Of a stretch of DNA of 64,000 nt, positions 23,301 to 62,700 are shown piece by piece. Within the stretch, counting starts at the first letter, position 1, and each line of letters begins with the position of its first letter. The position numbers and the translations under genes were made by a program. Under the pieces are notes generated by a model. That model worked only from the letters and a program-made list of their open reading frames with translations. It ran no database searches and was not told the DNA's origin. Source of the stretch: Macrosoma leucophasiata (Eukaryota; Arthropoda; Insecta; Lepidoptera; Hedylidae); contig JAWQUS010000008.1 of assembly GCA_036365455.1 (NCBI GenBank), forward strand, positions 12,259,501-12,323,500. The letters run 5' to 3'.

Positions 23301-26300
23301 ATCGTGACAACTTATATAAACAATAAAAGTTCAGCACGCTTCACATCGGCGCGTGCCTCGTACAAACATGCAAAGTTGTATAAATAACATGATCCGTGGT
23401 AATTAATTTTAACGATTCATTCGAATCGCAGGTCTGGTGTTCGTTTGCGGTTCCCGCGACGGTCTGATGACTGTGACCGGTCGTAAACACAACATGGATG
23501 ACATCATTGCGACAGTCCTCGCCGTGGAACCTATGAAGTTCATATACCGTGGCCGCATTGCTGTTTTCTCCGTGCGTGTGCTTCGTGACGAGAGGATATG
23601 TATTGTCGCTGAACAGAGACCTGATTGCGGCGAGGAAGAGGTGATTTTATATACCTTTTCTATCCTAATTTGATCCTAAGTTTTTTCAGTCAAGTACAGC
23701 ATTAATCCTTATCAAATTAATTACTTTGATTACTTTTAGAATTGCAAGCACATTATTATAATGTATTTGAAATGATTATCTAACGCCAATTTAATTCAAA
23801 CGCATTGCTCACTTCGAGTACGTGACTCGCTTGATGTATGTTTTTCCTTTGTAGGGACTGTTAGTCGAAAAATAATGCTGCGGTGTGGCGAGCGATATTA
23901 ATGCTATTTAATACTATTTATTCAACTCCTAAAATAAACATAATTATAGTAATATAAATAAAAAAATGTTTCCTTCAATATAATACCTATTCAAATTCAT
24001 ATTTTAAATCCAACAGTCCTTCCAATGGATGTCACGCGTGCTGCAAGCGGTAGATTCCATTCATCAAGTAGGCATCTATTGTCTGGCCTTGGTTCAGCCG
24101 AATTACCTTCCGAAGACACCGCTGGGTGGCATCCATCTCAGTGAATGCAAGCGTCGTTTCCTCGAGGGCACTCTTCATCCAGCCAATGTGCTAATGTGCC
24201 CTCATACGTGTGTTACCAATTTGCCTAAACCAAGGGAAATACATTCAGGTTAGTAATAATGTTATTATTGTAATGATACTCATATCTCTAATGCGGTCAA
24301 ATTGGCTATAGACTTCTTAGATATTTATCAATAAAATAAATGTTCAACATTGCTTTTGCTGTTTTATAAGGTTGACGTTTATCAATAATGTTGTTAATTA
24401 GCAAACCATTCAAGATAAATGTGACTATATTTTCACATAATGTAATAATGTTTCCCTAGATGTTGGTCCAGCATCCGTGATAGTCGGTAACCTGGTACAA
24501 GGGAATCGATTGGCGTCGGCACAGGGCAGAGATATGGGATACACGGACGACTCCGATGCCGCCCGCAAGGTAAACCAATTATTTAATTATCACGTGTAAA
24601 AGTCTTGTGTTTTTCTTACTTTGTTTTTATTCCTTTTTATTGGTGCACAATTGAGAATATATTAATGTTCATTGATCTGATTTTCTTACTTATTATTTAA
24701 AACATGCAACTAAAAGTTTGTTATTTTATTTCCAGTACCAGTTCATATCTCAAATACTAAGATGGCGCGCTCAAAGTACATCCGACCACGTTATATTTAC
24801 ACTCCTGAATTCTAAAGGAGCTGTGTCAAAAGTATTAACATGCGCGGAATTACACAAGAAAGCTGAAAGAATCGGCAACTTACTCCTTGAGAAAGGTCGC
24901 GTCAACACTGGTGACCACGTGGCTCTAATATTCCCTCCGGGGCTTGATCTCATTTGCGCATTTTATGGATGTTTGTATGTGGGTGCGGTACCAGTGACAA
25001 TCCGTCCACCTCATCCGCAAAACCTCCACACAACATTGCCTACAGTACGTATGATAGTCGACGTAAGCAAAGCGACACTAGTCCTCTCTAACCAGTCTGT
25101 GATAAAACTGCTGCGATCTAAAGAAGCCAGCAACGTCCTAGACAGCAAAGCCTGGCCAATCACGCTCGACACTGACGACATGCCCAAAAAGAAATTACCA
25201 ATTTTATACAGAGCACCTACAGCCGAGATGCTCGCATATTTAGATTTCAGTGTGTCTACAACGGGTATGCTAGCGGGTATTAAGATGTCGCACGCCGCTG
25301 TCACCTCATTATGTCGCTCAATGAAAATAGCTTGTGAATTATACCCATCTCGACACATAGCACTATGCCTCGACCCGTACTGCGGCCTCGGGTTTGCCCT
25401 CTGGTGCCTCAGCAGTATATACTCCGGGCATCACTCCATTCTCATACCTCCTTCTGAAGTTGAAATCAATCCCGCTCTTTGGCTTAGCGCAGTGTCTCAA
25501 TACAAAGTCCGTGACACTTTTTGCTCCTATGGAGTTATGGAGCTATGCACCAAAGGTTTAGGCAGCTCGGTTAATCAGTTGAAATCTAAGGGCATCAATC
25601 TAGCCTGTGTTCGAACATGCGTAGTAGTCGCGGAAGAGCGTCCAAGAATCAATCTGACGAATTCGTTTTCTAAACTATTTTCGGCCTTAGGCCTCAGCCC
25701 CAGAGCGGTATCCACTTCATTCGGATGCAGAGTTAATATAGCGATTTGCCTTCAAGGCGCTTCTAGTCCCGAACCGTCAACGGTGTATGTTGATCTCAGA
25801 GCGCTGCGGAACGATCGCGTGTCCCTAGTTGAACGCGGAAGTCCACACTCTCTATGCTTGATGGAATCTGGCAAGTTACTCCCTGGTGTAAAAGTTATCA
25901 CGGCGAATCCTGAAACGAAAGGGCAGTGCGGCGATTCGCATCTTGGCGAAATTTGGGTGCAATCTCCTCACAATGCGAGCGGCTATTTCACCATTTACGG
26001 CGACGAAAGCGACTACGCCGATCATTTTAGTGCTCAGTTGGTGACGGGTAATACTGGTGAGATTTATGCGAGGACAGGATATTTAGGATTTTTGAGAAGA
26101 ACTGAGATCAGTACGACTACTTCTACATGTGATGATACATCGATAATGACGAGAGACAGTGACACCGAATCGCTAGCGTCGGGATGTGGAAGCGTTGGCG
26201 GTATGGGCTCGGAAACACACGACACGCACGACGCTGTATTCGTTGTTGGAGCTTTAGACGAAACTATAATGCTTCGTGGTATGCGTTATCACCCCATCGA

Positions 26301-34340: not shown

Positions 34341-35655
34341 ATACGGTGGTAGAGCTTCAGTGATAGAGCTCAAAGGTACAAATATCATGTTAGTAGGTAA
34401 TATGGGTAGGTATGTCCGATACCCCATAATGATGGGTGTCAATTTGGGCTGCTGATTTCGAAAATGGCATCCGTTTTCAGATCTAAGATGGCGGACAGAC
34501 TTTTTTAATATAATAAGTGTGTCAATTTGGAGGTTTCTTGGTGTTCTAATTACGGAAATGTCATAATTATTCAGATCCAAGATGGCGGACATTATTATTT
34601 TTCCAAATTTTGATGGGTGTCAATTTTGAGGTTTTTTGGGGTGCTGATTACGAAACTGGTATATATTTTCAGATACAAGATGGCGCTTTTTTTTTTCGAA
34701 ATATGATATGGGTGTTTCATTTGAGTTTTTTTGAGACGCTGATTACGAAAATGACATTTTTTTTGATATCCAAAATGTCGGACTTAATTCAAAATTGTGA
34801 TATGGGTGTCAATTTCGAGGTTTCTTGGGGTGTTGATTACGGAAATATCATCATTTGTCAGATGCAAGATGGCGGACATTACAATTTTTTCAAATTATTA
34901 TATGTGTGTCTATTTTGAGGTTTCTTGGGTTGTTGATTACGAAAATGGTATTTCTTTTCTATCCAGGATAGCGGACATAATTGTTTTTGATTTGGATACA
35001 TCTATACAGTCTAATAGTCAGTAATAGCACTATATATGGTCCAAGGGACCTCGTAAGTTACAGGTATTTGATTTAAAATAATAGTTAACAGCCATCTTAG
35101 ATTTGAAAAAGATTTTATTTTTATAATTAGCACCCCAAGAAACCTTGAAATTGATACCCATTTCATATTTTGAAAGAAAAAAATCTGTCCGCCATTTTGG
35201 GTGTCAAAACAGATGCCATTTTCGTATTCACCACCCAAAGAAACCTCGAAATTGAAAACCATAGCACATTTTGAAAAAAAAAGTCTGTCCGCCATCTTTG
35301 ATCTGAAAACAGATGTCATTTATGTAATCAGCATCTCAAGAAACCTTGAAATCGACACCCATATCATATTTATAAAAAATATCTATCCGCCATCTTGGAT
35401 TTCAAAAGTCTGCATCTCAGGTAACCGTGAAATAGAAATCCATATCATATTTTAGAAAAATAAGTGTGTCCGCCATCTTTGACTTGAAAGGTGATACCAT
35501 TTTCGTAATTATCGCCTAGAGCAACCCTAACATTGACACCTACATTGCTTACATAATATATTATCGTTAGGTACTTACCATTAAGTGAAATGTGAATTGG
35601 GAAATGCGGTGGTGCTCGTACGCCCTGGAGCTTCATCACTGAAGCTCTACCACAG
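34341..35655. repeat. Foldback block: head-to-head arrays of ~97-bp units
   Basis: Left array, + orientation: AAGATGGCGGAC or close variants at 34485, 34579, 34677, 34772, 34866 and 34965. Right array, inverted: GCCATCTT-type cores at 35091, 35191, 35291, 35389 and 35472. Each unit also has GGGTGTCAATTT, GAGGTTTCTTGG and GATTACGAAAATGG. The outer ends carry opposed family A pieces (GTGGTAGAGCTTCAGTGAT at 34350 and its complement near 35640). Confidence 0.88.
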
Positions 35656-41780: not shown

Positions 41781-44700
41781 GTAAGTACAAAATTAAATAC
41801 ATATTTCATTTACTTTTAACCAGTCAAGTCACAAGAAAATATGGCAGTTGATTTTCAATTGGGTCTGGCCACCGGCACCTATAAACAAATCAAATCAAAT
41901 ATTTTATTGCATCAAATATTTACATTCCTTGAAGGGTTAATAACAAGTAAGTATGTCTTTAGATGTGCAGGTCTTAACTGAATATTTAAGTTCTTGAAGA
42001 TTGTGTGAATGTTAGTGTGTGTAAAAAATATATTGTCATATTTTTCTTGTGGTTTTAGCATAAAATATTACCTATATTAAAAATACCTAAAATCAATTCA
42101 GTTATTGATTCTGAACAAACTAGTTTCGGGATGTGCCTTTAATCCTGTTGCATGTTATATAGTTCTACTATTTAGAAGTCAAAAATAATAGGTACATTTA
42201 CTTAAATTCTGTAACTAGCATTAATACCATTTTGCCATTGAGCTACATTTATTAAGCTATATTTTATAATAATTAATAAAATTAAAAATAGAACAAAATT
42301 CTGAAAACTTCCTATAGTTTGAGTACAATTGTAAGTATATTAATAAAAAAAATAATTAGACAATATTAACTTTCAAGATCTTCATTTTGAACTCTTAGTA
42401 AATATTTTTTCTTTCTGCAGCACTACAAGCAATTCATATTGCTTTGAGCTGATGTTATCATCAAGTGGAGTACGTGGTAATCCTCGTAAGGTGCTTTTCA
42501 GTGCAACTAGTGCCTCAGAAAGACGAAATTGGGCTCAAGAGATTGCTGAACATCTCACTTCTGGTTTTCCTACCAAATATACTGCCGAATTTACCAGATG
42601 TGGCTGGTGTTATTTAAAGGTAAGTTTTATTATTTTTTTTTGTGCCTTGTTAGTTTATGGACATTAAACATATGAATAGTTAATTGCCTGAATTTCAAAA
42701 AAAGAAAATATTGCAAATTACATTGTGTGATATCAAACAACAGGTGTGAATATCTCAAACAGATTTTTTTAAATATTTTCAAAATAAATAATTTTGTAGC
42801 TATTTTTTTAAAAAATGTTATAAACATGAGCCAATAATTTTGAAAAAAATATACATAAAATATTGCTTTACAATGTAATAAAGGAAAACCTATGAGAAGT
42901 CTGTGATATTAACTTGACAACAAGTTGCGAAAAAAAATGAATGGAATCTGTGAATGTGAGTCCTTTGTTAGTAATCATTCTGAGGTGGGCACTGCTATCA
43001 GATGCTGTTGCTATTAAGTAAATAATATTCAAATTATGGCCACTCTGGGCTAATGGATGAGAATAAGTATGCCATCTACTATAATAAATAATGTGGGATT
43101 TAGAAAATATAAGTGGTGAATTATGTCTAGTGCAAGATTAATCAATTATTTAGTTAGGACATCACTTTTGAGGGGAGCAAGAATACCAGGGACAGTATAT
43201 TTAAGGATGACCACATTTTTTTAACATACTGCTATATGTAAGCTTCTTCTAATTTTATTAATCAATTTCTCCTTGATGAGCAAATAAATATATATAGCCC
43301 TGCATGAATAGCCCCTATGAATATACAAAATTAGTTTTGTAATTTGAATATGAAAAAAAGGATATGCCTCTATTAATATACTGAAAATGGGGCATATATC
43401 CCCTTTTTTTTGTTCTTTGAGAAAAAGTTGTTGTCAAGTCAATGGATAGGGGCGCACACTCAATCTTAGATTGCTTAGGGCATCAGGCTCTAAATGCTAA
43501 GTTCGAAATATATTCTTAGCTGTTGTAGATTTCTAGAATACATTTAACATACAGGACAGGTAGACACCGACTAACGGCAGTTGCATACAACTTGCATAAT
43601 TCGATCAACATCAATCACTGATTGAAGTAATAATATGAGTGTTGCTTGAATGAGTGATATCCTGAAGTGGGTTGCGTGTTAACTCTGTATCCTGTTATCA
43701 ATTCATCAAAATCGGGGTATGCCAGTGCTTATGATAGACGTGGTATATAGCTCGGAACGTGCTCTATGATGAGATGAGCGTATCTCAATCGACTATAGCT
43801 TGCGGTGATAATGACATATCAGCTATACATTATTGCAATCCAGTAATTAGTTTCGTAATATTTCAATATGATATTGTAGGTATTTCTTGTGTTGTTGACA
43901 TTGCGTGTAGTAACACAAATGTATGTTTAGACTGTGGTTTTAGTGTAAACTTTTAAGGATGTGGGCACCAAAATATTTTGTCGTCGTAAAGTACCTACCT
44001 ATTTCATACATCGGATGGATTGGGATAAAACCTCGCGATAAATGAATCAATAAAAATAGATTCTACTGTCATAACTCCAGAAAAGTCCGACTTCAAAAAG
44101 GAAGCGGTTATCATTATAACTGAAGTCTGTTAAAAGATCTAAAAACTTCAAAATTTCAAATAAGTAGGTATATTTTGTAAGATACAAGTCAACAGAACAA
44201 TAAGTTGACGATTAAGTACCTAATTGGTAAAATAAACTAATCGTTGTGGTTATCAGTTTAGTTAACGATAATAGTACCTAATCTTATTATTTAGTTAACT
44301 AGGTATAATAATAATAAACCCATCACTAAGTAGGTTAAATTTAGTTTTAACTTTTATAGTGCTTTGACTAATTACCTGTATCTATTTCGACACTATTAGG
44401 CCTAGGTTTCTTTCTACATATCTATAATAATATTATATTGTATAAACTAATTTTCCTATTGTGAGTTATCTAATCTCTCTCTTCTCGTTGTATTTCATGG
44501 TATAGGTATATAATATATTATTAGTTTCCCAAACACGCTGAGATTTCTGCAAAACAAAAGATATTTCCATTATTTACCGGCAAACAATGATGACCTGTTC
44601 CGAAGTCTAACTGTACCTACGCGTGTACAGAATCTAACAGTATCTAACAAAGAAAGGCAGGACGAGTACAAATAAGCGTGCATATAATTACATATTGATG

Positions 44701-47700
44701 TTTAATGTATGTACACATCGGTTATCATCGTTTACTTAATCTAACAGACTCGTACTCACATATTGTATTGATTACAAATGTAAGATAATCAGTAAAACGA
44801 AGGGGTGGTCGTTGGTTGTATTGTTTCATCAAAGACTTACAACGATATCATCAAAGCGAATGTACATCAATCTATCTTCATATTCTCGATAGTTAGATAT
44901 TGTTTTTATAAATCAACCAATTGTAATGCGGTATCGAATAGACCACTTCATTATGAGACATTAATGATTTCCATTTTAGTCCTCCGCTGTGCGTTATGCT
45001 GGCTCGATAACCTATAAACTTAATAAGGAATGTTGTTTATGAACTCACTGAGTCTGCTGAGCGAATATTACCTCTGTTATGGCGCATAATCCATATATTC
45101 ATATCTCTGACATTGCAAATATGTCATTTATGCTAATGATATAGGCGATTATATTTTATCCAAATAATACGATCATTACGATAATGTTCAAGACGTCTAC
45201 GTTTGTTGTTGGGAAAGTGTAAAGGCCTGTTCATATTTCTGTGTATACATGTAATATCTAATTCGAAGGAAAAGAGACTGCCTTTGTTCCATTATTTATT
45301 GGGCTCAGAGATTCGGCTATACTAAGCAACTCTATATAATAATATTACGTACAAATTTGTGGTATAATGTGTAGAAATTGAATAGTAGTGGGAGACACGA
45401 AAATGATGCTTCGGTGATATACCTATTTACTGGAGCGCTCAGTATTACCTCTAATAAAATTTGAAATAGTCAAAATTATCAACTCTACATGTCGAACGTT
45501 GTATCCTTTTACTATGTGATTGTGGATTAAAGTGCCTAGGCATTCGTCCGCTTGATCTTTGGTATACATGAAGTAGCTTCCTTTCTTAAGGTTCAATTTA
45601 TCTCCATGCGAAATTTCATCACGATTGGGTCTGCGGTTTGGTAAAATGCTAATTAAATGATTTTTGATTTTAATTGAAGTCAGATGACTTTGAAGATTTT
45701 ACAGTATTATGAAAAGAAATATAATAAGTAAGAACCACCTTTTATGGCATTTGATATGTTATTAAAACTTACGTAACCGATACAAACTTTACAATTTATA
45801 TGATAATATCGATAAGTTGGCCATCATCAATATAATAAAATTTATCGTAATAACACATATTAGTATATTTAAAGATTTTTAAAGAATGCTGCTATTTTTA
45901 TGCCAATACAGTTTCAAACAAGCTTGCAGTTCCCATTTATTGCAATTGTAACTTAATATTTATTGCAGCCTATATGCATCAATATAAATACCTACTAGAG
46001 ATCTTATTGTAGATGTATTTCACTCCAGTCCTAAAATGTCTTGCTTCAAAAAATTACGGGGCGACACACTACTATCAAGGCGGAACACGATAGTGCTGAT
46101 CACTGATATATTTGACACAGAGATTACGTAGTGCAGTGATGCTCTCAGTTCCGTCACTAGAACTACCGGTAAGGTGCATGCCTATGAGATCGGCCTATAA
46201 AATCTGACTTTATTTTCGACACTAACATGCTAATATCCGCATTCACCAATTCTGATTAGGATAATAGCTTGAGTATGAAAAAATATAGTCTCTCTCGTCG
46301 TTGACGACATTTTTGTGTAAGAGGATAGACAAGCTAAAGAAGCTTATATACGAGGAATAGAAAACCTAAATGTGTTGAAACGTGAACATTCAGTTGGCAT
46401 AAAGACCGAGAGGAATGTTTTTTTTTTAATCCTAACTGTTCCACGGTCCATTGTGTTGGCTTTGCGAAACGACTGCGCGAATGTTGACTCATTTTTTACT
46501 CCGCACTTGTTTATTTTTCACAGCAACCGCAAGTAGGTATGATATCGATAAAATGTGCTGCGCGCCGTAGTTTGTTTATGTTCCTTTGGGAACTAAGTTA
46601 TGTTGGATAAATATTGGAAACAATTTGCGAATAATACTTGTACCTATCCTTTGATCTTTTATGCAAGTGTTTATGTACGATGTAGGTACTTTGATATTGT
46701 TTTCCTTCAAAAGTTTGAGTTAACGACGATTTATTTATTGATCTCAATATAATTATAAGTAAAGATTATATTCAACTCCCCCAATTCATACTACCAATTC
46801 AGGTCGTCATTATCAATTCTCATTGATTTTTTTCGGAACGAATTCAATGGATTTGAAACATTGATTGTTTAAATAAAATTTCCTTCGTAATTCGTAGGTG
46901 TATTGGTAAAGCGAACTGGTTATCCTGAGGTCGCAGGTTCGATTCCTGCCTGAAGTCAAATATTAATTCAAGTTTTTTCTATAATTTCTAAATTCATTCG
47001 CATGTGTTTTAGCGAAAATATATATATAATCATGTCCCTACCTACAAGCTGTGTCTATTTTTCCGCGCCAATTCCCTTAATATTAATAAAATTATATAAA
47101 TTTAAAGACAGAGAGGGTAGAGCGTCAAGTATACGTTTTCTCACACATCTAGCTGGATTTTTCTTATGTTATCTTCTCGCTACCTTCATATTTGAGCCTA
47201 AAATTTTGAATTAATGATGTAAGAATGACACTCGACCTTGTTCTTGGCACATAACTCTTTTTTTAAGAACCAAACTGGATAATAGTGGATGTATCATAAT
47301 GTGAGACCCACAACAGACCTTCGTTGCTGTGGCACTCTTTATGATACAAAACCACAGCTGCGAAACCGCAGTAGAGTCCGATATACGATAAGGGAATGAT
47401 TTTATATTTTTTCTTTGCGAATACGCCGTATATTTTTTCTTTGCGGCCTTACTGCCGTAGCCCCTGCGTGGACCTAAATTGTGTGATGAGAGTTGGCCCT
47501 TACATTCTACCAGATAAATCAGAGCTTATACAGCTTATAAAAAAGAACTCGATTGAACAAATCCATTTTTGTTATAATAAAATTAACTATATTTTCTACT
47601 ACACCATTGAAATGTTTGTCTTTTTAGGCTATCTTTAGGTACAATGAGTGAAAAAATTCAGTGTGTATTAATTGCGTGACAGGAAGGCGTGAGCGGAGAA

Positions 47701-50700
47701 TGGCGCGGCGCGTGGCTGATGCTTATCAGGCGGCTGCTGGTGTACACCACCGGCGGCGACGTCTGCTCCGTCGACCTCAGAAAAACTAGATGCGTTGGTG
47801 AGTGCTTACCATTGACTAATCATTTTTGAAGTCCAGTAACTTACAACCTTTATAGTTTCGCCTTTTCCATCCATTCGTCCAGCCGTCCGTCTGTCTGCAG
47901 CTTAAACAAGCCTAACGCAGAGACTCTTAGCCTGTGTTGCATCAATATATTTGTTAAAGTTATTGTAACATTTCACATCCTTCTCTAACTTAAAGAAATC
48001 TGTTAAAGTTAGAGAAGGATGTGAAATGTTACAATAACTTTAACTTTAAAAATATCGTGGTGCAACCCAGCATTAGAACTTAGAAAGCTGTAACGCCTGT
48101 AACATAAGTGTCCTCCTGCATGAGGCAGCTAGCCGCGCGGCCAGCGGGCTGCGCTCTTCTAATTTTCATTTATACCGCGTCTTCGTTTGTATGGCCATAT
48201 CAAAAGACGACTAGCAGATCATGTTGTCCAGATAGAAATCTTAAATCTACCCGAACGTAAACTTGGCAGAGACCGCGCGCCATCAACCTGGTAATGATAA
48301 TGGTCCGTAATAAACCAGAGACCTTAAGATAACCCAATTGCCTGAATCGACAACCCAAGACAGAATGTCTTGGCGCAATAGAAGAAGATCCCTCTACATA
48401 CTCCCAGAATTCTTATAAAATAATTATATTTAGAATAAGTTAGGCTTAAATTAGGCTTAGAATAACCGTAACTTAGCTAACAGTTTAAATTTAACGATTT
48501 AAATAAGACAGAAGTAGGTATGTTTTACAAGTACAAGCTATTTTTTTGCCTGAATAGATTTAAAACGAATGCGACAACGAATGCCTACACGTATTATTTA
48601 CCGCCTGCAATCGTAGGAAATTTACCTATAGGTACCTACGTGAAGTGCAGTGGATCCTATTTCTTTAATGTAATTAGACATTCTTATAATAATTTTCCAA
48701 TTCATACTAGTATACATATATCATATTTTTATAGATAAAATCGCAAAATAACAATGCTTATCTTTTTATACCTTCTTGAACAGTATTCACGAAATTCTCA
48801 TTGTTGCTGTTGGACGCTGGAAAATATGGCGCTATTGTTAAATGTTTAATACCGTTATCAATAAGTTTTTTTCGAATTTAAACTGATTTAAAGTCTAAAC
48901 CGTTTAAACTGGTGGTAGAACTCCAGTGACGGAGCTCGCGGGCGTAGGCACCACCGCATTACCTTATATACTTGCCGCTAAATGGTAGTGTTCACCCCTA
49001 TCGTGTTCCGGTCAGGTGGTAATGTATGGCCCTGTCATTTCCGGCACAGAGGCATAACACCTTAGGCCTCAGAAGTGGTAACGCATTTGCATTTTGACCT
49101 CTGGTCTTTGTGTGACATTGATGTAAACTGCATGCTTGTTTACCACTTTCATGACATAAAATTAAATGCTCAAATTCTTTTCAACCTACTTAGCACTAGC
49201 GTAGTATTATTACATATTATCTGTCACTAGCTAAGTTTCTCCCAGTTGATTGTTAATTCATAATACATTGACATAAATCAAGCAACAAGCCTTTGCACTT
49301 TGTGTTGCGCTTACAAAGCACAGGGTGCTTTCGTGTGGCGCTAATTTACCGTCGTAAAAATATTAATTTTAGTAGGCACCTATAATATATATTTGGAGAC
49401 CAGGGTTTTAATCCATAGATCGGAAAGTTGCCACCTTATTACATGGGACAAAAAAGTAACTGGCGAATTGTGGGTATTTGCGTGTATTCTTGAATGCTTG
49501 CATTTGTCTATATACACTTATATATATATATTTGTTTGTTTACATCTGTGCCTGTATTCAAGAGTAGCAAACAGCAAATTTACATAGCCAATTAGTCGCA
49601 ATTGAAATCAAGAATAGGCCTGCAGTTCGTGCAATTGTTGACTTATGATCCTGGGCTATCAAAACCAAGTACGCTTACACCTTAATGATATTTTTAACGT
49701 TTTGGACTGGCGAATTATGCTGCTGAGTACGAGGAATCATTTAGCAGATAATAAATTAAGTAAATCATGCATGCAAACCTGGTACCGGTGTTTTGACCTG
49801 TGCTACAGTAGGACTGGCAATAATGTAAAAACTGATAATAATTTCAAAATGCATCCCTAAGGATTCTATATTTCAAAAGAATTTATTGGAACTGGCGTCT
49901 AAGATAAGATAAAAGCGTTGCCTCTGTTATTTCTTAATCCCTCAGGCCACCAGGAAAATAATAGGTTGGGGAAAAAGTCTTTTCGACTTGTAATAAAATC
50001 TCTTGGGCTGTAGTATTTGTATCTGGCTGGTTTTGGTATCATTGAAAGTTAAAATTTTAAAGAACATAATTCCAAATTCAAATTAGGCAAATGTGTGATT
50101 TTCATTTGTTTTTCGTACTGTCAAGGTGAGTGAATCTAATGAAGAAATTCGATACTTTTTAAAATTTTACTACAAAAAAGGTACACGGGCAACACAGGCT
50201 ACTGATACAATACATTGACTAATCTCTTAACCAACTTACCCAAAAGGTATGTACCTCTTCGCCAATATTCATTAAAAGGTCACAATTCATCCAGTATGAG
50301 CCAAGCGCATGCGCCTGTGGCTGCACACGGCTAATAGATTAATGAATGTTGGTAAAAGCAAGATTGACAATTCTCAACATGGTTTCGAATTAAATTATGT
50401 ATGTTATATCAAATATGAAATAGGATCTTTTCGAAATGATAACAAGGACTATTCGTTCATTCTAAGGGTAAGGGTAATTTGGCCAAATAAGGCCAATCGG
50501 TTGATTAGCTATCATTAGTTTTTTGACGGTTCCCTTCTTATTATCATAAAAATATTGTAATCGACGGCATGTGTCTGCTCTCAGCTGTCGGTCGTTGTTG
50601 ACATTGTGTTCGAATAGGGCTACTGGATAATTTAGATTATACATATAACTAGCTGACCGGAGATACGAAATTCGCCGAATTACGTACGCCAATCGGCGAT

Positions 50701-53700
50701 TTAACCTTCTCCTCAGAGTAACGAACACAAAAGATTTGCCCAACTTGGTGCAGTCGTTTGAAAGTTAAGCGCTTACAAACATTTTATTTCAATAGATAGA
50801 TTTAAACACAATCTACTCTTTTGTACCTACAATCCGCAACTTAGCAGTGGATGTCTACTGATACATTGACAGTTCTTATTCTTACCTAAAGGCGTATTAA
50901 ACTGGGAACTGCAAACTATCGTTACGGAAGGCACGGCATCACCAATATCAATTAACAGCCTAGGTCAAAGGTAAACGAGCGGTAAACACTACTGGTCAAA
51001 TTTGAGCAAGCGCAAATGTCCGTGACTGCACAAAGTTAATGGATGAATGAATGTTCTTTATAGCAAGATTGACACCGTTCTTAATAATTGGTTCGATTTG
51101 CAAGATAATTGTATGTTCGAGTTTGTAACATAATTATAATTATATTGATATGCAACATTCCTATAAAGCTTTCTAAATTAAAAATAATGAGATACTTTAT
51201 ATATAATATATATAATATTTATTATTTCTTATACAGAATTTATTTATTTTAAAGAACCAGAATTATAAATTGAATAGACGATATCACGACGCTACGACAA
51301 TATCTTAATTTGCGTCATTTCCTTTTCCTATAGGGTCGCGTGCCATAGCATAGAATTTAGATGACATTGACAGGGGGGCGCCAGAGTTCAATTTCATCAA
51401 GTTATATCTCACTGGTAACCTTTAACAGTGAGATGAAACTTCCTCATCTATAGCGAATACATATGGACGATCTAAAAGAGTTTATATTGTAAAAATGGTC
51501 ATTTTGGGATGTAAACAAAATAAACCTTGTTGCTGAATAGATAAGAAGAATTTATCGATCGATACAGATATTTTCTTATTGTTTTGACGACTAGGTTAGC
51601 CCAGCGATGTGATATGACCGTTTGATTCAAGGGTCGCGGGTTCGATCCCCGCATCGGAACACATATTTGTATGGCCTACAGATATTTGTTTCGGGTCTGG
51701 GTGTTTGTGTATGTGTTTGTGTACAACGGTACCCACGACGCAGATTTATACCTACTGTAAGGCTGTGAATGAAAGCGTGTTAAAAACAATAGCTTAAAAA
51801 ATAAAGAATCGTTCTATGAAACTATGTGTGTGTAAATTGTTTTAGAGATATTCAATATTATTAAATATTATAAACATTATTAAAAGGTAGCGATTTAACA
51901 TCAACAGCATTAACACTGATCGAATATTATAATATTCGATCAGTGTTAATGCTGTTGATGTTAAATCGCTGATATATATATAATAAAGAAAATATCTGTA
52001 TCGATCGATAAATTCTTCTTATCTATTCAGCAACAAGGTTTATTTTGTTTACATCCCAAAATGACCATTTTTACAATATAAACTCTTTTAGATCGTCCAT
52101 ATGTATTCGCTATAGATGAGGAAGTTTCATCTCACTGTTAAAGGTTACCAGTGAGATATAACTTGATGAAATTGAACTCTGGCGCCCCCCTGTCAATGTC
52201 ATCTAAATTCTATGCTATGGCACGCGACCCTATAGGAAAAGGAAATGACGCAAATTAAGATATTGTCGTAGCGTCGTGATATCGTCTATTCAATTTATAA
52301 TTCTGGTTCTTTAAAATAAATAAATTCTGTATAAGAAATAATAAATATTATATATATTATATATAAAGTATCTCATTATTTTTAATTTAGAAAGCTTTAT
52401 AGGAATGTTGCATATCAATATAATTATAATTATGTTACAAACTCGAACATACAATTATCTTGCAAATCGAACCAATTATTAAGAACGGTGTCAATCTTGC
52501 TATAAAGAACATTCATTCATCCATTAACTTTGTGCAGTCACGGACATTTGCGCTTGCTCAAATTTGACCAGTAGTGTTTACCGCTCGTTTACCTTTGACC
52601 TAGGCTGTTAATTGATATTGGTGATGCCGTGCCTTCCGTAACGATAGTTTGCAGTTCCCAGTTTAATACGCCTTTAGGTAAGAATAAGAACTGTCAATGT
52701 ATCAGTAGACATCCACTGCTAAGTTGCGGATTGTAGGTACAAAAGAGTAGATTGTGTTTAAATCTATCTATTGAAATAAAATGTTTGTAAGCGCTTAACT
52801 TTCAAACGACTGCACCAAGTTGGGCAAATCTTTTGTGTTCGTTACTCTGAGGAGAAGGTTAAATCGCCGATTGGCGTACGTAATTCGGCGAATTTCGTAT
52901 CTCCGGTCAGCTAGTTATATGTATAATCTAAATTATCCAGTAGCCCTATTCGAACACAATGTCAACAACGACCGACAGCTGAGAGCAGACACATGCCGTC
53001 GATTACAATATTTTTATGATAATAAGAAGGGAACCGTCAAAAAACTAATGATAGCTAATCAACCGATTGGCCTTATTTGGCCAAATTACCCTTACCCTTA
53101 GAATGAACGAATAGTCCTTGTTATCATTTCGAAAAGATCCTATTTCATATTTGATATAACATACATAATTTAATTCGAAACCATGTTGAGAATTGTCAAT
53201 CTTGCTTTTACCAACATTCATTAATCTATTAGCCGTGTGCAGCCACAGGCGCATGCGCTTGGCTCATACTGGATGAATTGTGACCTTTTAATGAATATTG
53301 GCGAAGAGGTATTCAATATTATTAAATATTATAAACATTATTAAAAGGTAGCGATTTAACATCAACAGCATTAACACTGATCGAATATTATAATATTCGA
53401 TCAGTGTTAATGCTGTTGATGTTAAATCGCTACCTTTTAATAATGTTTATAATATTTAACCTTGGATGAAATTTTACCATGGAAGCGTACAATGACGCAA
53501 ACTCACGAATAATTTGATACACGCCTTATCATTGCAATTGTGCGGCATCCGTTCTCTTCACTATGCGTTTTATGATAGCTAAAAATAGTTAATATGTTAT
53601 TTTTTTAATCACTTGTACCAGAATATAAAAATATCTGTTGTCAAAGTTCATAATGCAATATAGATTTTTAAGGTTATATGGTGGTAGAGCTTCAGTGACG

Positions 53701-56700
53701 GAGCTCGCCGGCGTAGGCACCACCGAATTACCTAATATACTTGCCGCTAAATGGTAGTGTTCAGCACTATCGTGTTCCGATCACGTGGCTCCGGCTTCCG
53801 GCTTCCGGCTTCCGGCAGGTAATGTCAGACCCTGTAATTTCTGGCACAGAGACATAAAACACCTTAGGCCTCAGGAGTGGTAATGCATCTGCATTTTGAC
53901 CTTGGTCTATGTGTAAGTGTCTATTGGCTGCAGTCATCACTTAACATCAATGTGAACTTCATGCTTGTTCGCCACTTCCATTATATAAAAAAAATTATGT
54001 CAGTGAATAAACATAGACAAAAATAGTTGGAGTACTATTCGAAGTTTCGAAGATGGGGTCAACAGTCAAGGCAAAATAGAAACAAAATAAGCGTTGAAAC
54101 TCTGTGAATCTCACAAGTTATAATAATATATATATATATATTGTTTACTATATATAAATAGCTCGTGAAGGGAGATTTTTCCCGTACTAAAAGCACCAGT
54201 AACTGGATACCGAGACATGGGATTGACAATGTCCAGATGGCGGTCTAAAATTATCAATGTGGCGTACTTCCGTAAATTTAACTTATGTCCTTGGACTACC
54301 AACTCGACAGATAATTTATATAAAAATACATAACGTAACTTCACGCCTGTAATCCCGAAGGGGTAGGCAGAGTTAAATGCATGCATTCAAGCATACATGC
54401 AAACACCCACGATTCGCCGGTTACGTTTTGGCCCATGTAACAGGTGGCGAGCCTGTTGACATCTCCGGGCACAATACCAAACTTCGAGGTACTGGACCAG
54501 AGATAAAGGACTTTATACCATTATCTGTGATATCCCACTACCCGGGAATCGAACCCAAGACCTCGGCGTAGTAGTAGTAGCCTGCTACCACTAGGCTGCC
54601 AAGGCAGTTAATTACAGATAATTTTTAATATATGTATTTTTATATACTTCTTTTCAATTGCTACATGAGTAAATGTATTAAACGTCTTGTTTTTTAACGA
54701 GCTGGTTGGTCCAGCGGTTTGTGACGACCATTCAAACCGAGGCTCATGGGTTCGATCTCCGAAAAATGTCCTCTTTCTGTGTAGGGCCAGTGACTGCTCC
54801 TACACAGATAGAGGTCATCTTATATTGGCCTGAATATTTTTTTTTCATGAAATCTTGAACCAGAAATATCATATTAAACCAACGTTTCCTATCACCCAAA
54901 ACATACCTACCCAGATCTAGCCCATTTCCTGACCCTTAAATATAATATTTTATACATAGGTACTATTGGGCAATTTATTTTTTCTGTTTAGAATAAATTC
55001 AACTTATTTACATTACATACACACATTTTGAATAAAAACACGTGAGATTGGGATAGGGGGGAGCCAAATCTCGTAACATCTCGCCAGGGGGAGGGAAGGG
55101 TTGAAAATTCGCTTAAAAGGCCTCACGTAATTAATGGACGGCTCCCAGCTGTTAATACGAGGAAGTCTGCTGATCGCTATATGTATATGTATAGCTACTA
55201 TTGAGAAGAACGCTGCGGCAAAAGCCAAATAGGTACTACATTAATTGTTGCATACGATACAAACAGATTGCCGCGTATTCACCCGCGTTAAACCTGATCC
55301 CATGGAACATGGGGAAAATATTTTATTCAGTGAATTTAGTGATGAAAGAATTTTATATATTCGTTACAAAAATATAAATGGTTTATGATAGACAAAATTA
55401 ATGTAGGGTGTTATTCGAACCACAACACAGATATAGGTAATTTGCATTATTTAGTCACAGCAACTATCATTGAAACATAATTTTGAACTCGACATCGTAA
55501 GCTTAGCGATAAGAATTATTTATCGGAACTGTGCCATTACTGATTCATCCGTTCTAGTCAGTACCTATGCCTACTGTAGATGGTCGCGAGAACTCGTGCG
55601 CCGCAACGATGATACGTCTCGACAGTTGTTTATTTAAATGAGATCAACATCGTGACAAGAAGTATGCACACCTAGCTTCCTGCGAGTGCGTGATTGATTA
55701 CTCACTGTACTAAACCAATAAATAAGTTACTGGTGTTAGAGCTTCAGTGTTCAGTGTTTAGTTTTTATTATCTCTTGTTTTAAAAGTTAGAGGTAAGGGG
55801 ATTATTTTACCACTTTAGGGGATTCTATATTTCAAACCATAGGCTTTGATAAAAATGGTTTTAGAAACCTCAAATGTCATTTTCAAAGATTTATATATAG
55901 ATATCAGACATGTACAGGTAAATGAAACAAGTTTTTTAGTTTCAGTCATAAGTATACAAATTCCGAATTTTTGTTTAATTATTATTCTTCTATAAAAATC
56001 ATAAAGCGGTTTACAAAACACATCCAGCTACCGAGTTTCAAGTATGTAGTTCTAAATGTTTCCGAGTAAAGTGGCTGTGACTGTGGACAGATAGACAGTC
56101 ATGACGAATCTATAAGGGTTCCGTTTTTTGTCATTTGGCTACGGAAACCTAAAAATAAGGGGGTAAGGTATTGACTATTAACCGATATTGTATAAATTGA
56201 CCAACCAGAAATTGTAAACGATGCATGTTATATCGGTTGTTATCCTGAGGCAGATCTAAATCAATGTTTTCCTTCCATTTTTTATGTAAGGAACACAACA
56301 CAGATATAGGTAATTTGCAGTATTTAGTCACAGCGACTAACATTGAAACATAATTTTGAACTCGTCGTCGTAAGCTTAGCGATAAGAATTATTTATCGGA
56401 ACTGTGCCATTACTGATTCATCCCTGGTCAGTACCTATGCCTACTGTAGATGGTTCCGAGAACTCGTGCGCTCGAAGGTGGTATATAAGCATGCGTTGCC
56501 ACCCCTGAGACCGTCACCACCCGAATCCGCTGGTCAGAGCGGCCGCGATTTGCACTCCTTTTGATCGCGCCAAAAGGAGACGTCCAAGGCACGTCTTAAA
56601 AGATCCGGACGATGAGATCACGTTGGCCATCGCCGCTATGAACTAGTGCCGTCTCGAGACAGGCCTCCTAAACAAAGGCCGACCTAAAAAAAAAAAAAAA

Positions 56701-59700
56701 AAAAACTGAGACCTAAGTTGTTACATCTCTGTGATAGTTATTACGAGACCATACATTACCATCTAATCGGATAACGATAGTGTTGAACACTACCATTTAC
56801 TGAATGAATATGGTTAAAAATGTATTATGATGGTTACAGTGACTCAAGATCCAGACGAGGAGACAAAACAGTTGTGTCCATCGGACGGCAGCGGCATCCT
56901 TCTCCTCGATTGTCCACACTCTACTCTCTATCTACATTTTCCACATGAACGGGAACTGAAGGTATCACAACTTTTTCAACGATTCTTATTGCATGGACCA
57001 GACAATTCGGCAGTAATTGAAACTGACCATACCCTGCCTCAATCCAAGTGTACCTGGAAAAAAAAATTGATTTAAAAAACAAATAGTATCTCATAGTTTC
57101 TGTATACATATTGTACGAGGGTGGATCCAAAAGTTCGTGGCCCAAAAAAGGAGATATGACATCTTTTTAAATTTATCGTCATATGTCTCATATTGATTTA
57201 TTGTGCACAGTTTCATTCCGATACTGCACAATATAAATTTTCTGTGATTATTTGTTTGAAGCATTCTGACGCGATTTTCAATAATGGAGAAAATTGAACA
57301 TCGTGCAGTCATTAAGTACCTCAATAAAAAAGGCCTGTCACCAAAAGACATCCATCAAGATATGGTGAGCACTTTGGGGGAGTCTGCTCCATCGTATTCC
57401 AGTGTCAAGAAGTGGGTAGCTGAGTTAAAGCGCGGTCGTGAGAGCATTGAAGATGATCCTAGGAGTGGACGGCCTACAACCTCTACCACGAAAGAAAACA
57501 TCGATAAAATTTGTGATCTCGTACTGGGTGATCGACGTTTGACCATTGGTAAGATAGCTGAGACAACAGACATTAGTTATGGCCGGGTGCAACACATAAT
57601 AACGAAAGAATTGGGATTCCATAAGGTTTCTGCTCGCTCTGTCCAGAGGTTGCTTTCAGCTGAACAAAAACGAGTTCAATTCACAATTTCGCGAGACTGT
57701 TTGGAACTTTTTGAGACTGATCCCGAGGACTTTTTGTCTAGATTTGTTACCATGGTTCACCACCATATTCCTGAATCAAAGCAACAATCCAAACAGTGGA
57801 AAAGATCTGACTCACCTACACCGAAAAAGGCTGAGGTCGTTTTGTCGACTAACAGTCATGGCTTCTGTTTTTTGGGATGCGAAGGGCATTATTTTTGTAG
57901 ATTATTTACCGAAAGGTCAAACTATTAATTCTAGTTATTATTGTAACCTTTTACGATGACTCCGAGAAGAAATAAAAGAAAAAAGGCCGGGAATGTTGCG
58001 TAAGAAATTTTTGTTCCATCAAGACAATGCACGTGTTCACACTTCGGTTGAAACAATGTCTGTAATCCATGATTGTGGCTACGAATTGCTGCCCCACCCA
58101 CCTTATTCGCCGGATTTAGCCCCCTCAGATTATAATTTATTTCCAAATTTAAAAAAAAACACTTGGGTGGCTCGAAATTTTCGACCAAAGATGAGGTGAT
58201 AGTCGCAGTAAACGAGTATTTCGCCGACCTTCCAGAATCTTTTTTTTTGAATGGATAAACAAGTTGCAGTTCACGTGGAAGAAGTGTGTTGAGCTAGATG
58301 GAGACTATGTCGAAAAATAAAAATAAATTTAGACCCACTTTTCTTTCATTTTCTTGGTCGGGCTTCGAACTTTTGGATCCACCCTCGTACTTTTGTTTAC
58401 TAAAACGTTAATAACGCTTGGTATCTGTTAAATGAAGCTGTAACAGTTTTAATACTACCACATTTTTTCCTTTACCTATAAATAGACAATAGGGATGTTG
58501 ATTATTTTTTTTGTTCTAATTTCATAAAGTTTACGAAACGTAGTAGGTACATAAAGTTTAGTACGAGTAGACGTTTTAAATTGTTACTTGTTTTTGAAAC
58601 GTCTACTCTATAGCTAATGGTTTTTAAAATAGAACTGTTGAAAACGTTGCGAGTTGTAAAATGACTCAGAACGCCTATATAAAATGACATAATGACGTCA
58701 CCGCGTGTTAAGGTACTTATTCACCATACCAAGGTATGGGAAATAAGTTCCTCATAGATACTGGTATTCTGTTGTGCTTGACCACACCCCCTACACTCGG
58801 CAAAAATTTCGTACAAACGCTTATTCTGGTTACCCTTATCTTATTACACAGACATCAATCAGTTCACGTGCACACAGAAATGTAGCATATAGGGTTATGA
58901 CCTAAAACAATCGTGAAATATGTAAAATTAGCTAAAAATAGATCGTTCGCTCGACCCCCTAACGAAAAGGAAGGAAGAAAATAGTCAACATAAGATTTTT
59001 CAAGTTATACTTCATTTCGCGCGATTGGAAAAAAATGATGAGAGTGAATTATTACGCTGTGCGCGCACACCGACAGATAAAAGCGACAGTCTGAAGTTAG
59101 TGTCTAAACAGATAAAAGCAACAGTCTGAAGTTAGTTGCTCAACTTTTTTTGTCGTTTTGTTTTATTTCTCTGGTATATTGGATTGTTACGCTAAAGAAG
59201 TATAACACTTCTTACGTGCTTACACAAGTACACTTCTTTTTTTCGTATATAAGATATTATTTTGTGTTTAGCTCTATCTTTTTAATGGTATACAAGAGAG
59301 GATATTGTTGTTGTAGATTTCAACAAATGTTTTTTATTTTCAGGGTTGGAAATATATGGTGAAATTAGCGGCGCACAATAACGGTGCTCAAATTCACCAC
59401 CAGCAGCTTACAAAGGAAGATGTCCCAGCCATCGTAGATAAATGTCTCAGTTTCATATATGCACATGGTACGTACCCGTTTCTTTCAATTACGTACTTTG
59501 TTTTAAATGGAAAGTGTTGTGGTATTTGTAAAAAAAATATTTTATTTATAAAAATCATGTTTTAAGATTCTTCAATTCCTATTGTGTAATTGGGAACATC
59601 TTGGACTATAAAAATAATGGGAAACTAAGCGATAGAGAGGCGCGATTTTCTAAGGATTTTATCATATCACGTAAAATTATCGTTAACAACCAATGTTTCT

Positions 59701-62700
59701 TATAATTTTAACAAATTTATATTTGTCTGACGATTCTACTGTATTAATTTTTACCCATCTCCAAAAAGAATAAGTCTCCAATAAGAGTAAGTTATAATTC
59801 GTATTTTATAGATATTTTTTTTACAAATTTACATTCCTCCACCAGGCAGTCTATCGGAGGGTATATACCGGCGCGCGGGCAGTGGGTCGGTACTATCGGA
59901 GTTACTCGCACGGTTCCGGCGAGATGCGTGGTCCGTACAGTTGAGCCCCGGTCACCATTCCGAACACGACGTCGCCGGTGTTCTCAAAAGGTTCTTTAGG
60001 GACCTCCCCGAACCGCTAGTACCTCAGGATCAACATCATACGCTTATATCGGCGTTGGGTAAGACTTTTATTACGTTTTTTTACTCGTTTCTACGAAAAA
60101 CTTAAGCATTTCTTAGACATTATTATCATATACTATACCATTTTAATGAAATTGAAGATCTTAGAGGGTTTCGCAAAAAATAAGGCGCTCGAAAATAAGG
60201 CAGCAATCGTCACTAAACATCCATATGAACTGCATGATTGTTAGCCACCTCCTAACGGTGTATGCAGAGAGAGAGCGCCAATTATCCCTTATTTATTCTT
60301 ATGCACCTCCCGTGCCTCCTCTTCATTTATAATTCTCTTTCTACATGCACGCCGAAAAAAAGAATCTAACGACTCGGTTAGTCCAGCGGTTTTAGATGAC
60401 CGTTTGATTGAACAGCTCGCGGGTTCGATGCCCGCACCGGGACATAGGTTTGTATGGCCGATATTTGTTTCGGGTCTGGGTGTTTGTGTATGTGTTGTGT
60501 GTACAACGGCATCCACGACACAGGCACACCGCGGACTCCACTCCGCCAAAATTCCATACAAATGCTTAATTTGGTCTCTATTACACAGACATCAATCAGT
60601 GATGTGTATTTACACGTGCACGCGTAGAACGTACAAAATACCAACCGTCGCCCATAAGAGGGGAGGAGTTTGGGTGATACGGGGAAATCGGGCTGGACGT
60701 CGAAGTGTCCATTCTATACGTAGTATTATTAAATATTCTCTGACACAGATTTATACCTAGCGTGGGGCTGTGAGTGTAAGCGTACATATTTTTATATTTT
60801 TTAAAATAAAGATTGATATAACAGGTATAAAAGACGAGACGGCCCGCCACGCGGAGTACCGACGCGTCATGAACTCGCTGCCGCTGGTTGCCCGCAACAC
60901 CGCTCGCAAGCTGTTCGCGCATCTCCACTTCCTGCACACTATGGCCCACGCCAACAAGATGGGCGCGGAGAACCTTGCATCGGTCTGGGCACCAACTGTC
61001 ATGCCCGCTGCTATGGTGAGTTCGAGCTTTATTATGCATAGCTAGGCATTGACTAGTTTATTCGTTAATTGTTAAATTTACCTAATAATAATTTAATTTA
61101 AGTTACCATGTCCGACTAACGGATTAAGTTTTGTGTTTAAAAATGTTAACGGACTCGTTAACTTGTGCATTATGTATCTTCACGCCAGGTCCCTAACGGG
61201 GTAGGCAGAGAGTGTAGAGCGCCAGACATCCCGGTTCTGACAAACCTCTCGTGCCTCGTCTACCTTCATCATTCTCTTCATACATGCACGCCGATTCCTA
61301 AGACTTTTGACACCACCATCAGACAGAACTCGACCTATTTGGTCATGGTAGGTCAGCCTTGGTCTTCCTGGGCCTCTGCAACCATCCACATTCGCATTGT
61401 ATATCTGTTTAGTCATTCGCTCATTCGACATTCTTTCTATATGCCCGAACCATCGGAGCATGCCTTTTTTCATTTTTACACCGATACTATCATTCACACA
61501 AAGTCTCTTTCTTACATCTTCATTACGAACGCGATCGGTGAGTGATACACCGCAGATCTTGCGCAAAGATCTCATCTCGACCGCGTTCAACTTACTTTCA
61601 TGCTCTTTCCTGCATACCCAGCTCTCGCTTCCATATAAAAGCGTTGGAGTAAGTACAGCATTATGTACGGCTAGTCGAGCCCGCTGGCTGAGATGTTTCG
61701 ATTCTAGCAGCTTACCCAACGCTCCATTCACGCAATTCCCAGCAAGCACTCTTCTTTCTATGTCAGTGGTGTACCTACCATCCTTGCTAAAAGCACATCC
61801 AAGATATACAATTTCATCAACCTGTTCTAACACTGCATCATCTACTACTACCCTTGCATTTGTTCTCTGTTCATCTCTTTCAAATACTAATACTTTAGTT
61901 TTATCCACATTCAATTGTAAGCCTTTCTCCATACAATCCTCTTTCATGACTGTGACTAGTGCTTGTAGCCCAGATGGTGTAGAGCTAACAATTACCGCAT
62001 CATCTGCGTAAAGCAGACAGTTCACCACTAAGTCACCCATACGCACTCCCACATCCATCAACTTCACCCTCTGGAGGCATTTGTCCAGATATATAATAAA
62101 CAGCCTAGACGAAAGCACGCAACCCTGTTTGACACCGATGTTAACATCAAACCAGGGTGACATGTTACCATCTACCCGCACACATGCTTGACAGCCCACA
62201 TACGTGGACTGTATTGCACGGAGCAGACTGCCATCAATACCATACTCTGGCAAAATGTCCCACAGCTCCTTTCGTAATACCCTATCAAACGCCTTCTCCA
62301 AATCCACAAAACCGCAGAAAACCTTCTGGCTCACAGCCAGATGCTTCTCTACGATGTTGCGGAGGGAGAAAACTTGATCCATACATCCTCTTCCAGATCT
62401 GAAACCACCCTGTGCATCCCACAACAACCCGTCGGACTTCTCTTTCATTCTTCTTTCTAAAACTTGTGCCAAGTTCGTTAACGTTAATCTGGTACTAACT
62501 GCGCACCGCACTGCATCGCCGCAAAATATGCGTTTTATGTAAACTGTAAAGACAACTAAATTCGGGCCGGTCGACAAGTGAAACGCGACGCGTGCGCCTA
62601 TTGAAACTGGACGAAATAGATATTTGTTAAATACAATTATGTATGTAAAAATTACACACAGTACATATTCAAAACAACATTTTTTACAATGTTTTCTATT

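What the first reader, a model, noticed from the sequence alone, without database searches (positions are those of the whole stretch)
50252..53311. A 3.06-kb near-perfect hairpin inside an intron of RhoGAP15B
Two 1,326-bp arms, identical wherever compared, surround a 408-bp loop in the sense strand of a probably transcribed gene. If real, the pre-mRNA would contain more than 1.3 kb of continuous duplex. That is the geometry of insect hairpin-RNA loci that feed Dicer-2 (endo-siRNAs) or ADAR editing. Such long identity implies very recent birth, strong gene conversion, or an assembly error.
Basis: partly seen in the sequence, partly recalled or inferred. Interest (0 to 1): 0.75.

Follow-up and report, generated by a model that had tools for sequence, protein, structure and literature searches.

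The report
Recent intronic inverted duplication beside palindrome
A 1.3-kb stretch of one intron was copied backwards next to itself, most likely when DNA copying stumbled on a perfect 138-base palindrome; it makes a huge potential RNA hairpin, but nothing yet shows that the hairpin does anything.

Summary
The hairpin is real in the assembly. Arms 50252-51577 and 51986-53311 are 1326 bp, 100% complementary, loop 408 bp, in a 9,042-bp sense intron (47798-56839) of an ARAP/RhoGAP15B-like gene. It and its partial copy are the two longest short-spacer palindromes of the window; the next has 17-bp arms. One backward template switch explains all repeats: synthesis left the palindrome at 51970, added 15 nt, copied 51577 back to 50252, re-entered at 51849 and went on. 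This predicts a 1,461-bp insertion (51971-53431). Direct repeats of 8 bp around a SINE in the loop suggest that the left arm is the original. In the 616-Mb genome the full-length arm was found only here; its other scored matches are an ~80-bp dispersed repeat. The palindrome was found only here. Neither looks like a transposon family. Zero differences in 1326 bp imply recent origin or homogenisation. siRNA or ADAR roles are untested. A clean example of a known mutation class; modest interest.

The parts
47798..56839 (+). 9,042-bp GT-AG intron of an ARAP/RhoGAP15B-like gene holding the structure
   Evidence: exon ends and frame; RhoGAP exons (and a PH match below cut-off); ARAP3 best PDB match. 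The exon 47683-47797 was found by a motif pattern of mine, not by a family search
50252..51577 (+). left arm A, inferred original copy
   Evidence: 100% complementary to right arm; adjoins the SINE's left flanking repeat; full-length only here and in A'
51578..51585 (+). ATTGTTTT, left target-site duplication of the SINE
   Evidence: an 8-mer match in such flanks in 108 of 20000 random placements
51586..51835 (+). tRNA-derived SINE-like element in the loop
   Evidence: two relatives in the window; hits in 5 of 28 other own-genome loci held, two of them starting at its first base
51836..51843 (+). ATTGTTTT, right target-site duplication of the SINE
51849..51970 (+). D1: first copy of the 122-bp direct repeat, with truncated palindrome 51889-51970 (82 bp perfect)
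   Evidence: identical to 53310-53431; palindrome
51971..51985 (+). 15-nt AT-rich filler at the first switch junction
   Evidence: no complete second copy within 49001-55000, longest other match 12 nt
51986..53311 (-). right arm A', inferred inverted new copy of 50252-51577
53310..53431 (+). D2: second copy of the direct repeat; overlaps the arm end by 2 bp (TA)
53322..53459 (.). 138-bp perfect zero-spacer palindrome P, ends TTAA...TTAA
   Evidence: no other copy found in the own genome
51971..53431 (.). inferred 1,461-bp insertion; leaving it out gives the proposed pre-event allele
   Evidence: direct-repeat spacing 1461; junction shown

Best explanation
It is a recent local inverted duplication of intron DNA (single-copy but for a short dispersed repeat) made by DNA template switching at a perfect palindrome. 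Proposed pre-event order: left flank - A (50252-51577) - SINE - 122-bp segment leading into palindrome P - right flank. Synthesis running rightward entered P, left it at 51970, added 15 nt, annealed to the opposite strand at 51577 and copied A backwards to 50252, then re-annealed through AGAG(G/A)TA at 51849, copied the segment and all of P, and continued. In four-point terms 1 = 51970, 2 = 51577, 3 = 50252, 4 = 51849 (order 3-2-4-1). Shown: the repeats, their identity, boundaries and the copy numbers that the searches gave. Inferred: direction, single event, P as trigger. If the intron is transcribed, the pre-mRNA can form 1.3 kb of duplex; I think it most likely has no selected role.
For: All duplicated segments are explained by two switches: A/A' (1326 of 1326) and D1/D2 (122 of 122), spacing 1461 = 15 + 1326 + 120. 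The exit point lies inside, and the re-entry point 12 bp before, the strongest palindrome of the window: arms 69 (partial copy 41), next best 17, spacers up to 10 allowed. In 28 other own-genome loci (86,310 bases, not a random sample) the longest such arm was 27, and the palindromes listed (arms of 12 or more, in 9 of 28 loci) all have spacers of 4-6. Return junction: 2 bp exact, 6 of 7 imperfect microhomology. ATTGTTTT flanks the SINE on both sides (108 of 20000 by chance), placing A next to the D1 segment before the SINE came. Full-length arm found only twice; left third without outside matches (4 of 4 candidates scored); P only here (2 of 2 candidates scored); no direct repeats of 4 bp or more at the edges of A or P, one AATA for A': no sign of a transposon. 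Hairpin-induced template switching is described in PMC7999016 (passages).
Against: No relative or second haplotype without the insertion was available. The first junction has a 15-nt insert of unknown source and no clear microhomology. The switched tract (1326 nt) is about ten times the longest of the great-ape set (maximum 128, PMC7954356, passages), so it sits with larger FoSTeS/MMBIR-type events. Exact inverted repeats of 40 bp or more are not rare here: 7 of 28 other loci hold one. A history of two or more steps cannot be excluded. The right 778 bp of the arm was never searched alone (all tries unanswered).
Confidence: 0.75

Rival explanations
1. Assembly or sequencing artefact, such as a fold-back read or chimera built into the consensus.
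For: Zero differences in 1326 bp; palindromes are hard to sequence (established knowledge).
Against: A fold-back read gives an outer flank that is the reverse complement of the left flank; here the second arm leads into a precise 122-bp copied segment and an unrelated right flank. The 408-bp loop is largely non-palindromic, with a SINE between 8-bp repeats. The contigs are long (615,993,266 bases in 61 contigs; this one 25,973,610 bases).
Confidence: 0.07
2. Rest of an inverted triplication (ODIRA-like): A-S-D joined to an inverted copy and a second direct copy, later trimmed by two deletions.
For: PMC10766186 (passages) holds that palindromic junctions of inverted triplications are often trimmed by secondary deletion; D is present twice in direct orientation, A in inverted.
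Against: Needs two further deletions; no third full copy of A and no second SINE copy between the arms or beside them; the two-switch model needs one event.
Confidence: 0.1
3. A selected hairpin-RNA (endo-siRNA) locus: the intronic duplex is cut by Dicer-2 and the small RNAs silence a target. (It concerns function and could be true together with the template-switch origin.)
For: Sense orientation in an intron and full duplex; a young Drosophila hpRNA arose inside an existing non-coding transcription unit (PMC10317233, passages).
Against: No target seen: the arm has no other long match; 38 of 40 scored matches (of 222 candidates) are an ~80-bp dispersed repeat at arm positions 450-546, 78-91% identical. 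No RNA data. The duplication mechanism accounts for the structure without selection.
Confidence: 0.06
4. Two insertions, in opposite orientation, of a mobile element 1.3 kb long.
For: Identical inverted copies near each other can arise this way.
Against: No other full copy found in 616 Mb; no flanking direct repeat of 4 bp or more at A, only AATA (with a shifted edge) at A', and 3 of 20 terminal bases matching between the two ends; the same direct repeat lies on both sides of only one arm.
Confidence: 0.02

Closest known systems
Four-point template-switch mutations (Loytynoja and Goldman model, used in PMC7954356, passages)
   Same: Three ordered fragments L-1, inverted 2-3, 4-R describe the locus; hairpin-prone sequence at the exit point.
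   Different: Inverted tract 1326 nt against a maximum of 128 in the great-ape gold-standard set; order 3-2-4-1 with a 122-bp direct duplication and a 15-nt insert.
FoSTeS/MMBIR complex rearrangements (named in PMC10766186, passages; details recalled)
   Same: Short microhomology, inverted templated insertion, extra bases at a junction.
   Different: Small (1.46 kb inserted), seen in one genome assembly rather than as a disease allele.
ODIRA inverted triplications (PMC10766186, passages)
   Same: Inverted copy of a local segment, palindrome at the junction, directly repeated segment.
   Different: Two copies of A, not three; only 1.3 kb.
Drosophila hpRNA loci (PMC10317233, passages)
   Same: Long inverted repeat that can lie inside an existing transcription unit.
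   Different: No small RNAs, expression data or target known here.

Membership tests
Template-switch (four-point) rearrangement | Sequence decomposes into L-1, inverted 2-3, 4-R with precise copies | tested here: met
   1326 of 1326 and 122 of 122 identical
Template-switch (four-point) rearrangement | Microhomology at junctions | tested here: inconclusive
   return junction 2 bp exact, 6 of 7 imperfect; exit junction has a 15-nt insert
Template-switch (four-point) rearrangement | Pre-event allele found in a relative | not testable with these tools
   the tool states that this genome has no relatives held
ODIRA inverted triplication | Three copies, middle one inverted | tested here: not met
   two full-length copies of the arm
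hpRNA / endo-siRNA locus | Long inverted repeat in a transcribable strand | tested here: met
   intron sense strand, 1326 of 1326 paired; transcription itself not tested
hpRNA / endo-siRNA locus | Dicer-2-dependent 20-22-nt RNAs | not testable with these tools
   no RNA data
hpRNA / endo-siRNA locus | Complementary target elsewhere | tested here: inconclusive
   only an ~80-bp dispersed repeat (40 of 222 candidates scored); left third has none outside the locus; right 778 bp not searched alone
MITE or other transposon (palindrome P or arms) | Further copies in the genome | tested here: not met
   P: none found; full arm: none found
mir-3327 (RF03845) | Score at or above the family's gathering cut-off | tested here: not met
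   64.1 bits against 85; 8 of 2000 dinucleotide-shuffled and 3 of 2000 mononucleotide-shuffled palindromes align as well

The most novel reading that the evidence does not exclude
A single-copy perfect palindrome, itself a snap-back product, seeded a second, larger template switch, and the resulting intronic 1.3-kb duplex is a newborn endo-siRNA/ADAR source caught before it has a target. The locus would then show each step from palindrome to hairpin-RNA gene in one intron.
Probability: 0.08. Interest if true: 0.6.

Novelty: new member of a known kind. Interest (0 to 1): 0.35.

Why it matters
It shows, with all junctions and likely polarity still readable, how a palindrome can create a kilobase hairpin in one step. 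Such births are a plausible raw material for hairpin-RNA genes, whose place of origin PMC10317233 calls an ongoing conundrum (passages), and for ADAR substrates. It also makes a simple prediction (a 1,461-bp presence/absence difference) that population data can test.

Tried and rejected
Transposon reading of the arms and of palindrome P: at first I took P for a TTAA or TA MITE because of its symmetrical TTAA ends; the genome search found no other copy, so I dropped it. MicroRNA reading of P: Rfam mir-3327 scored below its cut-off, other hairpin families also matched below theirs, and shuffled-palindrome controls reached the sequence similarity in 8 of 2000 (dinucleotide) and 3 of 2000 (mononucleotide); as the best of 4227 families this is weak, though not nothing. 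A 33-letter pattern from P in viral contigs: 0 matches. Literature: (terms on hairpin RNA and endo-siRNA in Lepidoptera, perfect palindrome MITEs in Bombyx, long inverted repeats in lepidopteran introns) listed 2, 0 and 1 papers, none of them on such a structure by title; I opened none of these three. Other searches. The prokaryotic promoter/terminator scan has no bearing.

Full report
Observation. The two arms 50252-51577 and 51986-53311 are exact reverse complements over all 1326 bases, with 408 bp between. They lie in a 9,042-bp intron (47798-56839, GT-AG, reading frame continuous across it) of a plus-strand gene. Of ten frames scanned, two further along give RhoGAP above Pfam's cut-off and one upstream (42356-42664) gives PH below it (20.5 against 25.1 bits); the exon next to the intron, 47683-47797, I recognised with a PH-like motif pattern of my own, not with a family search. 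The RhoGAP pieces joined by hand match ARAP3 best among solved structures (E 8.7e-31). RhoGAP15B as the insect name is recalled. The genome, G000, has 615,993,266 bases in 61 contigs. No call names the organism; the repeats suggest a moth or butterfly, which is my recollection only.

Anatomy. From left to right: a truncated mariner 5' end in the left flank, arm A, the 8-mer ATTGTTTT, a tRNA-derived SINE-like element (51586-51835), ATTGTTTT again, then a 122-bp segment (51849-51970) ending inside a palindrome, a 15-nt AT-rich filler, arm A', then the same 122-bp segment (53310-53431, 122 of 122 identical) continuing into the full 138-bp perfect palindrome 53322-53459, then the right flank. The SINE has two relatives in the window and hits in 5 of 28 other own-genome loci, two of which begin at the same base as this copy. 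An 8-mer match in comparably placed flanks occurs in 108 of 20000 random placements, so the target-site duplication is likely but not certain.

Copy number. The full arm has two places in the genome, both here; the other 38 of the 40 scored matches (40 of 222 candidates were scored) lie in a stretch of about 80 bp, arm positions 450-546, at 78-91% identity. The window stretch 50200-50690, which covers the left third of the arm, matched only this locus, including an internal 78% repeat (4 of 4 candidates). The palindrome with its edges (53312-53480) matched only this locus (2 of 2 candidates). The tool warns that very common words are skipped, so absence is not absolute. The right 778 bp of the arm (50800-51577) and the SINE with its flanks could not be searched alone; every attempt was unanswered.

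Mechanism. Leaving out 51971-53431 gives a simple order A - SINE - segment - palindrome - right flank. From that order, one excursion makes the present sequence: exit inside the palindrome at 51970, 15 nt added, backward copying of 51577 to 50252, re-entry at 51849 at the imperfect microhomology AGAG(G/A)TA (2 bp exact, 6 of 7 in all). The exit lies in, and the re-entry 12 bp before, the strongest palindrome of the 64-kb window: 69-bp arms, with its partial copy at 41 and the next best at 17 (spacers up to 10 allowed). In 28 other loci, 86,310 bases and not randomly chosen, the longest such arm was 27 and the palindromes listed all have spacers of 4-6; exact inverted repeats of 40 bp or more were found in 7 of those 28, so inverted repeats as such are common here. 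Transposition is disfavoured: no flanking direct repeat at A or P, only AATA with a shifted edge at A', and no terminal inverted repeat (3 of 20 bases). Passages of PMC7999016 describe hairpin formation on the lagging strand followed by template switching. Passages of PMC7954356 give the four-point notation used here and a maximum switched tract of 128 in the great-ape set, far below 1326.

Polarity and age. The 8-bp repeats around the SINE tie the right end of A to the left end of the 122-bp segment; this puts A in its old place and makes A' the new copy. Whether the SINE came before or after the event cannot be told. With the Heliconius rate of 2.9e-9 (start of the abstract seen in the listing, PMC4271535), 0 differences in 1326 aligned sites give an expected 130,000 generations to the first difference and an upper 95% bound of about 390,000; for rates of 1.3e-9 and 5.5e-9 the upper bound is about 870,000 and 206,000. 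Gene conversion between arms would make the event older than this. The palindrome, single-copy as far as searched and perfect, is best read as a snap-back product kept perfect by the same kind of templated repair; that is inference.

Function. If transcribed, the intron can fold into a full 1326-bp duplex, -2537.8 kcal/mol for 50252-53311. Passages of PMC10317233 report a young Drosophila hpRNA that arose in an existing non-coding transcription unit, and hpRNAs with complementary targets. Here no target beyond an ~80-bp dispersed repeat was found, with the limits above. I regard a neutral by-product as most likely; siRNA or ADAR roles are open.

Against the reading. No pre-event allele was available, the exit junction lacks clear microhomology, the source of the 15 nt is unknown, and no read data were seen. 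A trimmed inverted triplication (passages of PMC10766186) would give the same repeats at the cost of two more events.

Noticed in passing
49965-50207: Truncated 5' end of a mariner element in the left flank, nearly identical to the one at 4637-4897 but with a short internal deletion and no further mariner match in 49500-54500.
   Followed up: partly
4637-5842: Mariner element with HTH_48 and Transposase_1 matches in two separate open frames.
   Followed up: no
57284-58199: Second mariner-type transposase remnant in the same gene (HTH_48), seemingly split over frames (by eye).
   Followed up: no
61180-62577: Minus-strand reverse transcriptase frame of 465 aa (RVT_1) inside the gene region.
   Followed up: no
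34421-35545: Array of diverged units, six of them spaced 94-100 bp, in both orientations.
   Followed up: no
15710-15797: ARAGORN (bacterial mode) calls a tRNA-Cys; most of it lies in a stretch repeated inverted at 54496-54610 at 88%, so it may be a tRNA-like SINE head.
   Followed up: no
50297-50369 and 51003-51074: An older 78% direct repeat inside the arm, spacing about 705, found only at this locus.
   Followed up: partly
53322-53459: Palindrome matches Rfam mir-3327 below cut-off on both strands; bmo-miR-3327-3p is a silkworm microRNA in PMC5091789 (passages). Probably a generic hairpin score.
   Followed up: yes
24718-26496: AMP-binding frame upstream on the same strand, with a DIP2-like domain match below its cut-off.
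   Followed up: no
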